A DNA stretch of 64,000 nucleotides. Origin: Halarchaeum nitratireducens. GTDB lineage: Archaea > Halobacteriota > Halobacteria > Halobacteriales > Halobacteriaceae. A program made the position numbers and the translations under genes. Shown here in pieces: positions 51,977 through 54,230 of the stretch (positions are counted from its first letter, which is position 1; each line of letters opens with the position of its first letter). The notes under the pieces are model-generated. The model saw only the letters and a list, made by a program, of their open reading frames with translations, ran no database searches and was not told where the DNA came from. The DNA lies in assembly GCF_014647155.1 (NCBI RefSeq), contig NZ_BMOQ01000004.1, positions 310,001 through 374,000 on the forward strand, read 5' to 3'.

Positions 51977-52289
51977 GGTGTCGGATCGGACGCGTGCCCC
52001 CCGCCTAAGCGTTGTCCCCATCCCGCTCGTGTCGACGCACCCGGTACGGGGCACGCCGTCCGCGTGGTGTTCGCGTGGTGTCCGCGAGCCGTGTGCGCCG
52101 TGCGCGCCGCTCGGTGACAGAAACGAACGCCGCGAGAACGCGAACCGCGGGGGGTGGCGGGCCGGAGGTCGCGAGTCGCTATCTTTCTGCGAGGAGAGAA
52201 TCCCGGCGTTCACGCCGTTGACGAGACGCGAAGCGCCTCGTTCGCACACCAGAACGCTTTGCGTTCTGAGGACGGGCGTGAATCCGACA
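51977..52289. other. Gene-free interval left of the TnpB element
   Basis: About 310 bases without a gene. The last third is strongly structured (see 52209-52282) and looks like an old right end of an IS200/IS605-type element: GAGAATCCCGGCGTTCACGCCG near 52195-52217 is the kind of terminal hairpin I recall from haloarchaeal IS1341 ends. The first part has no recognised signal apart from the OsmC-gene promoter. Confidence 0.4.
52209..52282. repeat. Three-way-junction hairpin, left flank of TnpB
   Basis: An outer stem TTCACGCC (52209-52216) with GGCGTGAA (52275-52282) encloses two inner hairpins. The first is ACGAG A CGC, loop GAA, GCG C CTCGT at 52221-52241. The second is CAGAACGC, loop TTT, GCGTTCTG at 52250-52268. 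The same fold, with different sequence, occurs on the right flank at 53657-53723. Confidence 0.6.
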
Positions 52290-52373
52290 CCTCCTACACA
52301 GGGTATCGTCGATTGAAGGCCGGATATTCCACGAATCCATATCATTAAGTAGATTTACAAACATAGCCTATGT

Positions 52374-53624
52374 ATGGCGATCAAGGTCACTCGCACCTAC
52401 GTTGGTTCCATCCAGAACCATCGTCAGGTCAGCGATGACCTCAATTCGCTCGGAGACGCCGCCTCGAAAATCTGGAACGTCGCACGATGGACAGCAGATC
52501 GCGTCTGGGACGCTACTGGCGAAATCCCAGACGAAGGCCCGCTGAAATCGTACATGAAGAACCAACCGTGCTGGAAAGACTTGAACGCGCAATCCAGTCA
52601 GAACGTCATTGAAGAACTTTCTGACGCTTTCCACTCATGGTTCGACCTGCGGCACAAGGACGAGACGGCGAATCCGCCCGGCTACCGGAAACACGGCGAC
52701 ACCCGCCCCAAGAGCACGGTTACGTTCAAAGAGGACGGGTTCAAACACGACCCCGAGAACAACCGCGTCAGACTCAGTAAAGGTTCGAACCTCAAAGAAT
52801 ACTGGTCAGACTTCATCCTTTGCGAGTACAGAACGCGCCCCGACGTTGACCTCTCGGACGTCAACAGCGTGCAGAACGTTCGCGCGGTCTGGAACGGCGG
52901 GGAATGGGAACTGCATTTCGTCTGCAAAGTCAGCCTCGAAACCACCGACTCCACAGGCGACGAAGCGGCAGGAATTGACTTAGGCATCAAGAATATTGCC
53001 ACGGTCGCGTTCCCCGACGAGTACGTTCTCTACCCCGGGAACTCGCTCAAGCAAGACAAGCACTACTTCACGCGTGCCGAGTACGACACCGAAGGGGAGA
53101 ACGGCCCGTCTGCGAAGTCAATGAGGGCGCGCCGGAAACTCGCAGACCGGGAAACACACTTCTACCACACGCTCACGGACACCATCATCACGGAGTGTGT
53201 TGAACGCGGTGTTGGAACGCTTGCGGTGGGTTGGCCCGAAGACGTGCGCAACTCTGACTGGGGGAAGACGGGGAACAAGAAGTTGCACACGTGGGCGTTC
53301 GATCGCATCTACCAGTACCTCGCGTACAAAGGTGAGATTCGGGGTGTTGAGGTACTCAAAGAGAACGAATGGGATACCTCGAAGACGTGTTCGGCGTGCG
53401 GTGACAACACGAAGTCGAACCGTGTTGAGCGTGGGTTGTACGTCTGCTCGTCGTGTGGATTAGTCGGGAACGCGGATTGTAACGGCGCAGAGAATATGCG
53501 GCAGAAGATGACTCCGAGTCCTCACGGTGAGGATAGGAGTAACGGCTGTGTGGCACAGCCATCGGTACACCTGTTCGACCGCGAGAGTGGTGCGTTCGCA
53601 CCGCGAGAACAGGTCGTATCGTAG
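52374..53624 (+). CDS. tnpB: TnpB, RNA-guided nuclease-type protein of IS1341 family
   Basis: The 416-residue protein has an N-terminal helix-turn-helix/WED-like part and a C-terminal RuvC domain. RuvC-I Asp202 lies in GIDLGIKN and RuvC-III Asp368 in NADCNGAEN. The zinc ribbon is Cys339, Cys342, Cys358 and Cys361. At RuvC-II the usual Glu (VEDL-type) is replaced: the strand reads TLAVGWPEDV, so Gly286 occupies the canonical place and Glu289 lies three residues later. The ATG at 52374 is preceded by an AT-rich promoter and an ACATAG/CTATGT palindrome (52361-52373). No TnpA partner is present. Confidence 0.88.
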   Translation: MAIKVTRTYVGSIQNHRQVSDDLNSLGDAASKIWNVARWTADRVWDATGEIPDEGPLKSYMKNQPCWKDLNAQSSQNVIEELSDAFHSWFDLRHKDETANPPGYRKHGDTRPKSTVTFKEDGFKHDPENNRVRLSKGSNLKEYWSDFILCEYRTRPDVDLSDVNSVQNVRAVWNGGEWELHFVCKVSLETTDSTGDEAAGIDLGIKNIATVAFPDEYVLYPGNSLKQDKHYFTRAEYDTEGENGPSAKSMRARRKLADRETHFYHTLTDTIITECVERGVGTLAVGWPEDVRNSDWGKTGNKKLHTWAFDRIYQYLAYKGEIRGVEVLKENEWDTSKTCSACGDNTKSNRVERGLYVCSSCGLVGNADCNGAENMRQKMTPSPHGEDRSNGCVAQPSVHLFDRESGAFAPREQVVS

Positions 53625-53723
53625 ACCGGCAAATATCCCACCTGCGGTACGGGAAGCCTCGCCGTCGTCGGGCGAAGCCCGACTGCATGAGGGATCTTCG
53701 ATCCCTCTCCGTTTACGGCGAGG
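53520..53723 (+). ncRNA. Putative omega-RNA (tnpB 3'-overlapping guide RNA) region
   Basis: The last 105 nt of tnpB and the following 100 nt form a series of stable hairpins. These are CCTCA/TGAGG at 53520-53532, GGCTGTG/CACAGCC (53544-53560), and ACCTGTTC/GAACAGGT (53569-53614) enclosing GGTGCG/CGCACC. A three-way junction follows at 53657-53723: outer CCTCGCCGT/ACGGCGAGG, inner GTCGGGC/GCCCGAC with loop GAA, inner GAGGGATC/GATCCCTC with loop TTC. Overlapping 3' transcripts of haloarchaeal tnpB genes (sotRNAs) and omega-RNAs have this position. Exact ends and guide cannot be read from sequence alone. Confidence 0.55.
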
Positions 53724-53729
53724 AGGATG

Positions 53730-54128
53730 TCACTCGTACTCTTCGAGCGTCGTGACGTAGGAGGTGAGATCCGTGGTCGTCGCGATACCGATGATGTGGT
53801 CGTCGTCGGTCACGACCGGGATGTGGTGAATCCGGTGTTCGAGCAGCTTTTCCGCGACGTCGGTCACGACGTCCTGTGCGCTCGCCGTCACGACGTCCGT
53901 GGTCATGAACTCGGCGACGGTCGACTCGTCTTTCGGCTGGCGCTCCGCGACGATGCGGACGAAGTCGGTCGTCGTCAGGATCCCCGCGAGCCGTCCCTCC
54001 TCGTCGACGACGACGACGGAGCCGATCCCCTGATCGAGCATCACTTGCGCGGCCTCCTCGACGGAGGTCTCCGGGGTGACGGTCGTCGCTCCGGCCGTCA
54101 TCAGGCGTGCGATGAAGACGTCTTCCAT
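53730..54128 (-). CDS. Tandem CBS-domain protein
   Basis: The 132-residue protein is almost entirely two CBS motifs (about 6-62 and 70-126), each with the pattern MTxxxxTVxxxxxVxxAAxxMxxxxIxxVVVVDxxGxLxGIxTxTDF. The pair forms a Bateman module that binds adenine nucleotides such as AMP, ATP or SAM. It starts at ATG 54126-54128. Its stop codon is part of the TnpB element end, so insertion did not cut the gene. Partner protein not evident. Confidence 0.85.
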   Translation of the reverse strand: MEDVFIARLMTAGATTVTPETSVEEAAQVMLDQGIGSVVVVDEEGRLAGILTTTDFVRIVAERQPKDESTVAEFMTTDVVTASAQDVVTDVAEKLLEHRIHHIPVVTDDDHIIGIATTTDLTSYVTTLEEYE

Positions 54129-54230
54129 GCACTCGTCATCGGACGCCCGCGAGTTAAGTGCTATCGAAGCGGATCCGATCGCGCGGTGAGTCGGCCACAA
54201 ACGTTTTTCAAGTAGATTGCCGAACGTTGC

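What the first reader, a model, noticed from the sequence alone, without database searches (positions are those of the whole stretch)
53520..53723. Multi-hairpin 3' region of tnpB: candidate omega-RNA ending in a three-way junction
Four consecutive strong helices span the tnpB 3' end and downstream. The last is a 9-bp outer stem holding two perfect inner hairpins (loops GAA and TTC). This position and fold fit the omega-RNA or sotRNA of TnpB. The junction is more elaborate than the simple terminal hairpin I recall for related elements and may include inserted triloop hairpins.
Basis: partly seen in the sequence, partly recalled or inferred. Interest (0 to 1): 0.55.

Follow-up and report, generated by a model that had tools for sequence, protein, structure and literature searches.

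The report
Double-hairpin repeat inside TnpB guide-RNA end
The odd branched fold at the end of this salt-loving archaeon's TnpB gene is the usual end hairpin of a transposon guide RNA with a 47-letter two-hairpin repeat inserted in its loop, a tiny and apparently mobile sequence that recurs across haloarchaea and sits mostly in such transposon ends.

Summary
Observation confirmed. The stretch is the TnpB omega-RNA (Rfam sot0042, 107 bits, cut-off 88) of a tnpB-only IS200/IS605-type element at 52183-53733. In 73 of 87 elements compared, the terminal right-end hairpin is a plain 19-nt hairpin. Here and in 7 others it is exactly 47 nt longer. The extra 47 bp (53664-53710) is a two-hairpin unit in the loop: GTCG - 6-bp triloop hairpin - CTGC - 8-bp triloop hairpin.

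The unit has strong covariation. Its covariance model hits 332 of 384 haloarchaeal-order genomes, against 3 weak hits in about 163 others of the phylum. Of 112 sites read, 93 lie at IS605-type ends, all on the same element strand. On the TnpB tree the 10 unit-bearing elements need 10 separate gains or losses. One element exists with and without the unit, otherwise identical over 143 nt. Three 99%-identical unit-bearing copies sit at different sites, so the unit does not block mobility. A second double hairpin interrupts the left-end hairpin.

Closest precedents: SMR-A repeats of Haloquadratum and bacterial REPs; neither matches. How the unit moves is unknown.

The parts
52179..52182 (+). CTAT, the probable target/TAM motif left of the element
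   Evidence: CTATC is present upstream of tnpB in 70 of 85 loci and CTAT in 7 more. The orthologous empty site in same-genus genome G005 reads TTAT directly joined to TCGTACTC, the sequence right of 53733.
52183..53733 (+). IS200/IS605-type (IS1341-like, tnpB-only) element
   Evidence: Boundaries from alignment of relatives and an empty site. No Y1 TnpA match in the 98%-complete own genome.
52202..52280 (+). Left-end hairpin (CCCGGCG-TTCA-CGCCGGG without the insert), interrupted in its 3' arm by insert B
   Evidence: Simple hairpin in most relatives. Fold as DNA z -2.96, 4 of 200 shuffles as good, MFE not a clean junction.
52217..52273 (+). Insert B, a second 57-bp double-hairpin repeat in the left-end hairpin
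   Evidence: Pattern found in 74 of 392 genomes of the order, reversed-pattern control 0. 34 of 70 sites read lie at IS605-type ends, all on the element's own strand.
52374..53624 (+). tnpB, 416 aa, intact
   Evidence: Pfam OrfB_IS605 and Cas12f1-like_TNB; TnpB and Cas12f chains in the PDB.
53506..53733 (+). omega-RNA / sotRNA scaffold, overlapping the tnpB 3' end
   Evidence: Rfam RF02656 sot0042 53506-53678, 107.2 bits, cut-off 88. The Rfam match stops early because the model's 3' arm is forced onto the inserted hairpin.
53544..53560 (+). omega-RNA hairpin 2; its loop GUGGC (53550-53554) pairs with GUCAC (53729-53733)
   Evidence: In 97 of 106 distinct loop/end combinations with an NTGGC loop, the loop base N matches the last base of the element: G-C, U-A or A-U.
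53657..53723 (+). Right-end hairpin carrying insert A: outer stem 53657-53665 with 53715-53723
   Evidence: Simple 19-nt hairpin in 73 of 87 compared elements; fold.
53664..53710 (+). Insert A, the 47-bp double-hairpin repeat (GTCG-HP1-CTGC-NN-HP2-TCC)
   Evidence: Exact 47-nt difference from uninserted elements; unit edges also fixed by tandem copies in L247; covariation; genome distribution.
53734..53753 (+). Expected guide segment (3' end of a CBS-domain-like gene on the - strand); its length of about 20 nt is assumed, and the gene name is recalled from its sequence, not from a family search
   Evidence: First bases after the element. The same sequence abuts TTAT at the empty site in G005. 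Guide use is inferred from known TnpB systems.

Best explanation
The stretch is the 3' part of a TnpB omega-RNA. The three-way junction is the element's ordinary right-end hairpin with a 47-bp double-hairpin repeat (insert A) inserted in its loop. Shown by sequence: the exact 47-nt presence/absence, fixed position and strand, conserved two-hairpin fold, dispersal over haloarchaea, and intact unit-bearing elements repeated at new sites. Inferred: the repeat is itself a small non-autonomous mobile element that prefers terminal hairpins of IS605-type elements, most likely entering as or into single-stranded DNA on the strand that forms the hairpins; and the omega-RNA tolerates it because stem, pseudoknot and guide junction stay intact, so the element can still be mobilised in trans and carry the repeat along.
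For: omega-RNA: Rfam hit above cut-off; loop/end covariation 97 of 106. Insert: right-end hairpin length 19 nt in 73 of 87, 66 nt in 8 including the window; L077 and L068/L075 identical over 143 nt apart from the unit. Fold: 64 copies, 98.8% of cells paired, 52 double-changed cells against 11.6 in shuffles, covariation 0.181 against 0.056 or less when slid. Spread: 332 of 384 order genomes at E<=0.01; phylum sample 28 of about 33 order genomes against 3 of about 163 others at E<=0.001. Target: 93 of 112 sites at IS605-type ends, none reversed; a stem of 7 bp or more across the empty point in 63 of 112 against 104 of 1652 random points. Recurrence: 10 carriers, 10 changes on the tree, at least 6 forced by well-supported branches. 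Mobility kept: L377-L379, 99.1-99.7% identical over about 1504 nt, same unit, different flanks; tnpB intact in 8 of 9 carriers plus the window, 69 of 77 non-carriers.
Against: The tree cannot tell gains from precise losses, and short direct repeats (GT, sometimes CCGT) flank the unit, so slippage loss is possible. Local recombination between similar IS ends could copy unit, position and strand without the unit being mobile. 19 of 112 sites are not at recognisable IS ends, and only 2 of these 19 have a 7-bp palindrome at the point. 16 of 83 unit-bearing genomes, the window's own included, have no Y1 transposase match at E<=1e-10. No RNA evidence. Copies were first collected by a sequence pattern, which limits the variation seen.
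Confidence: 0.78

Rival explanations
1. The unit is not mobile by itself. It was inserted once into an ancestral IS605-type end and has since been passed between IS ends by homologous recombination or gene conversion, and lost by slippage between flanking short repeats.
For: Position and strand are always the same at IS ends. Right-end and left-end hairpins are similar in sequence. GT follows the unit in 91 of 112 sites, so a GT...GT deletion restores the plain hairpin.
Against: Units sit within differing host stems (CCTCGCC, CCGCGCC, CCCCGGC, CCCCGCC), and in the cleanest pair the stem equals that of the unit-free sister (L077 against L068). Units also occur at 19 of 112 sites away from recognised IS ends, some as tandem copies. 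Model hits number 20-30 per genome in some g11 genomes.
Confidence: 0.2
2. The unit is a functional omega-RNA domain kept because it helps TnpB or guide-RNA maturation.
For: Strand-fixed, structured, with conserved unpaired motifs GTCG and CTGC. Carriers keep intact tnpB.
Against: Present in only 10 of 87 close elements, scattered on the tree. Also found in left ends, away from IS ends and in tandem, where no omega-RNA is expected.
Confidence: 0.04
3. A narrower form of the best explanation: a REP-like single-stranded element moved by a Y1 (TnpA or RAYT-like) transposase.
For: C-GTCG tag at the hairpin foot, reminiscent of CGTC-tagged REPs (PMC3733652, abstract and passages). Unit-bearing genomes more often have Y1: 67 of 83 against 184 of 301, p = 0.0007, not corrected for kinship. 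The strand bias fits a single-strand step.
Against: 16 of 83 carriers lack a Y1 match, including G309 with 8 pattern matches. Linkage of a transposase to the unit was not searched.
Confidence: 0.35
4. Chance or artefact: GC-rich hairpins that only look special, or an assembly error.
For: High GC makes hairpins easy. L053 shows a duplication around an N that looks like an assembly fault.
Against: z -3.9 to -4.9; exact 47-nt recurrence in 8 of 87 elements; reversed-pattern control 0 in the genomes listed.
Confidence: 0.01

Closest known systems
Haloarchaeal sotRNA / TnpB omega-RNA (Rfam RF02656 sot0042; sot RNAs of Halobacterium salinarum, PMC12558985)
   Same: Position over the tnpB 3' end, helices, pseudoknot loop with the element end, right-end hairpin next to the guide.
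   Different: Right-end hairpin enlarged to a three-way junction by a 47-nt insert. Rfam's model has a plain 9-bp terminal hairpin.
SMR-A small mobile repeats of Haloquadratum walsbyi (HqIRS42/43/55, PMC3119063)
   Same: Transposase-free haloarchaeal repeats that insert in near-terminal palindromes of IS605-type elements and PATEs.
   Different: SMR-A are about 110 bp with prominent terminal inverted repeats and are read there as inactivating; this unit is 47 bp, a double hairpin without terminal inverted repeats, and unit-bearing elements have kept moving. Sequence identity to SMR-A was not tested (their sequences were not held).
REP elements, GTAG and CGTC super-families (PMC3733652, PMC2817692) and REPINs (PMC3116915, listing only)
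   Same: Short palindromes with an unpaired tag at the hairpin foot, no own gene. Some bacterial REP dimers are reported inserted inside palindromes (PMC3733652, passage).
   Different: Fixed head-to-tail pair of unlike hairpins with triloops; CGTC REPs have 8-9 bp stems, 4-5 nt loops and mostly head-head dimers. PMC3733652 has no occurrence of words beginning 'halo'.
Double-hairpin elements of fungal mitochondria
   Same: Small mobile pairs of hairpins (recalled; only a search listing was seen).
   Different: Unrelated genomes; no sequence link tested.

Membership tests
TnpB omega-RNA / sotRNA (RF02656) | Score above the family's curated cut-off | tested here: met
   107.2 bits, cut-off 88
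TnpB omega-RNA / sotRNA (RF02656) | Overlaps the 3' end of tnpB on the same strand and ends at the element's right end | tested here: met
   tnpB 52374-53624; right end 53733 by alignment of relatives
TnpB omega-RNA / sotRNA (RF02656) | Pseudoknot between hairpin-2 loop and the terminal motif | tested here: met
   97 of 106 NTGGC combinations complementary, three pair types; 9 not complementary; 9 further of the 115 rows had no NTGGC loop
TnpB omega-RNA / sotRNA (RF02656) | Guide equals sequence flanking the element, present at the empty site next to the TAM | tested here: met
   G005 empty site TTAT|TCGTACTC against window CTAT...TCGTACTC; one species only, first TAM base differs
TnpB omega-RNA / sotRNA (RF02656) | Expressed and bound by TnpB | not testable with these tools
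   No RNA or protein data for this organism
SMR-A small mobile repeats | Inserts within near-terminal palindromes of IS605-type elements or PATEs | tested here: met
   93 of 112 sites at IS605-type ends
SMR-A small mobile repeats | About 110 bp with prominent terminal inverted repeats | tested here: not met
   Unit length 45-49 bp, 89 of 112 exactly 47; ends GTCG...TCC or TCT are not inverted
SMR-A small mobile repeats | No target duplication | tested here: inconclusive
   GT follows the unit in 91 of 112, and the unit starts GT; a 2-bp duplication cannot be told from a unit that ends before GT
REP elements (CGTC/GTAG tagged) | Unpaired conserved tag at the foot of the hairpin | tested here: met
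   GTCG first in 98 of 112, C before the unit in 94 of 112
REP elements (CGTC/GTAG tagged) | Stem 8-9 bp, loop 4-5 nt, mostly head-to-head dimers (CGTC families) | tested here: not met
   6-bp and 8-bp stems, triloops, same order in all 64 aligned copies; definition from PMC3733652 passages
REP elements (CGTC/GTAG tagged) | Linked RAYT transposase (GTAG REPs) | tested here: inconclusive
   Y1 in 67 of 83 carriers against 184 of 301 others, but none in own genome; linkage not searched

The most novel reading that the evidence does not exclude
Haloarchaea carry a large family of minimal (45-60 bp) double-hairpin mobile elements whose niche is the single-stranded hairpin loop of IS200/IS605 transposon ends. 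They enter the excised or displaced strand in one orientation only, can nest in each other, ride along with the host transposon without killing it, and so become part of TnpB guide RNAs.
Probability: 0.35. Interest if true: 0.75.

Novelty: new variant of a known kind. Interest (0 to 1): 0.52.

Why it matters
It shows that the right-end hairpin of a TnpB guide RNA can take a 47-nt structured insert while tnpB stays intact and the element goes on spreading, which is a natural map of where omega-RNAs tolerate cargo. It exposes a haloarchaea-wide family of very short double-hairpin repeats with a strong target and strand preference, which bears on how transposase-less palindromic repeats such as REPs and SMRs move. 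It also questions the reading in PMC3119063 that such insertions serve to inactivate IS605-type elements: at least three 99%-identical unit-bearing copies sit at different places.

Tried and rejected
A functional omega-RNA domain was considered and set low, because the unit is scattered over the TnpB tree and also occurs away from omega-RNAs. A single vertical origin was rejected: 10 carriers need 10 changes. Viral spread: the pattern had 0 matches in viral contigs. A broader scan for GTCR-hairpin-YTGC-hairpin gave 30 hits outside family A against 10 in shuffled sequence. Building the model from a mixed 45/47-nt alignment was dropped because MAFFT put the gaps at the end; only 47-nt rows went into A2 (64 rows), leaving out 45-nt and odd-length copies.

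Not followed: whether the unit changes Rfam scores or omega-RNA folding in other clades; a search for a linked transposase; full counts of units per genome (model search scores only a capped number of candidates per genome). In one search the listing was cut, and I fetched 30 loci plus 80 listed places, leaving out some listed rows of the same genomes; 112 distinct sites were read. L053 is excluded from the unit counts as a probable assembly fault.

Papers: PMC3119063 passages and sections 25, 31; PMC12558985 outline, section 19 and passages; PMC3733652 outline with abstract, and passages; PMC2817692 passages; all others only as search listings. In those searches of the open PMC library I saw no description of this 47-bp repeat; that is no proof that none exists.

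Full report
What is there. The window holds a tnpB-only IS200/IS605-type element: tnpB 52374-53624, 416 aa, with OrfB_IS605 and Cas12f1-like_TNB domains. Reading 87 close elements (the window and 86 relatives), the right end is GAGGATGTCAC, ending at 53733 here. CTATC stands upstream of tnpB in 70 of 85 loci. A same-genus genome (G005) has the orthologous site without the element...GGGTTAT|TCGTACTCTTCGAG..., against CTAT|element|TCGTACTC in the window. This supports an element at 52183-53733, with the first bases after 53733 as the guide. That last step follows from known TnpB systems and was not tested here.

The omega-RNA. Rfam sot0042 matches 53506-53678 at 107.2 bits, cut-off 88. The alignment shows why it stops at 53678: the model ends in a plain 9-bp hairpin whose 3' arm is forced onto the first inserted hairpin. 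An omega-RNA pseudoknot between the hairpin-2 loop and the element's terminal motif has been proposed for Halobacterium (PMC12558985, section 19). Here the loop GUGGC (53550-53554) can pair with GUCAC (53729-53733). In the loci held, 115 distinct loop/end combinations were read: 106 have an NTGGC loop, and in 97 of these N is complementary to the last base of the element (mainly GTGGC/GTCAC 72, TTGGC/GTCAA 16, ATGGC/GTCAT 4); 9 are not. This is good support for a real RNA; transcription itself was not tested.

The three-way junction. In 73 of 87 elements the terminal hairpin is a plain 19 nt between the two landmarks; 8, the window included, have 66 nt; one has 64; one (L026) has 125 with a further nested insertion; two have 20 and one 18; L053 (136) looks like an assembly duplication around an N. 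The extra 47 nt is the two-hairpin unit 53664-53710. Element L077 and elements L068 and L075 are identical over 143 nt across the site except for the unit. Tandem units in L247 fix the same edges.

The unit. In 64 aligned 47-nt copies the two hairpins pair in 98.8% of cells. There are 52 cells with changes on both sides against 11.6 in shuffles, and a covariation score of 0.181 against 0.058 (shuffled) and 0.056 or less (slid). The loops are hypervariable triplets; the unpaired GTCG and CTGC are nearly invariant. The sequence pattern occurs in 84 of 392 genomes of the order, with no match of the reversed control in the rows shown. The covariance model hits 332 of 384 at E<=0.01. In a sample across the phylum it hits 28 of about 33 genomes of the order, and 3 of about 163 others, weakly (E 2e-4 to 5e-4; the listing was cut, so 33 and 163 are inferred from its order).

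Where it sits. Of 112 sites read, 88 are at IS605-type right ends, 5 at left ends, 19 elsewhere or in tandem; none is reversed relative to the element. With the unit removed, a stem of at least 7 bp spans the point in 63 of 112, against 104 of 1652 random points. Among the 19 other sites only 2 have such a stem. GT follows the unit in 91 of 112 and C precedes it in 94 of 112. A second double hairpin, insert B, interrupts the window's left-end hairpin (52217-52273). It occurs in 74 of 392 genomes, and 34 of 70 sites read lie at IS605-type ends, again only on the element's strand.

How it behaves. On a tree of 87 tnpB sequences the 10 carriers need 10 changes (shuffled mean 9.6), at least 6 forced by well-supported branches; so presence changes often. 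Three copies in one genome (L377-L379) are 99.1-99.7% identical over about 1504 nt, end within about ten bases of the element's right edge, carry the same unit and have different flanks. tnpB is intact in 8 of 9 carriers plus the window and in 69 of 77 non-carriers. The unit is therefore compatible with an intact element that still spreads. Genomes with the unit more often have a Y1 transposase (67 of 83 against 184 of 301, p = 0.0007, not corrected for kinship), but 16 carriers, the window's genome included, have none at E<=1e-10.

Interpretation. The novelty is that the elaborate terminal junction is a composite: a standard right-end hairpin plus a tiny, probably mobile double-hairpin repeat. 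The nearest described system is SMR-A of Haloquadratum (PMC3119063), which likewise lands in these palindromes but is longer and has inverted ends; REPs share a foot tag but not the architecture. Whether the unit moves by itself, by a Y1 enzyme on single strands, or by recombination between IS ends cannot be decided from sequence alone.

Noticed in passing
window 52202-52280: The left-end hairpin of the same element carries a different 57-bp double-hairpin repeat (insert B), so both ends of this IS are interrupted by such repeats.
   Followed up: partly
L026 and L209: A further double hairpin is nested inside hairpin 1 of insert A in two different genomes, so the right-end hairpin grows recursively (125 nt in L026).
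   Followed up: partly
L247, L251: Head-to-tail tandem copies of the 45-47-bp unit.
   Followed up: no
G029, G045, G066, G087, G123 (genus g11): Twenty to thirty model hits per genome, near the number of candidates scored, so the true copy number may be higher; their contexts were not read as a set.
   Followed up: no
L090, L091, L155, L192, L203, L250, L289, L299, L331: Probable cousin repeats with the same GTCR-hairpin-YTGC-hairpin plan but different stems; 30 such hits against 10 in shuffled sequence.
   Followed up: partly
window 53713-54132 (- strand): The element landed at the stop codon of a CBS-domain-like gene (name recalled, not searched) and supplies a new stop directly after the same last residues (EEYE).
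   Followed up: partly
window 52374-53624: The RuvC region reads LAVGWPEDVR where a solved TnpB-like relative reads TIQMEDL: an apparent three-residue insertion before the Glu-Asp. Most relatives read SWPEDVR.
   Followed up: partly
own genome G000: No Y1 TnpA match at E<=1e-10, although 15 TnpB-like matches were found, so any mobility here needs help in trans or has ceased.
   Followed up: no
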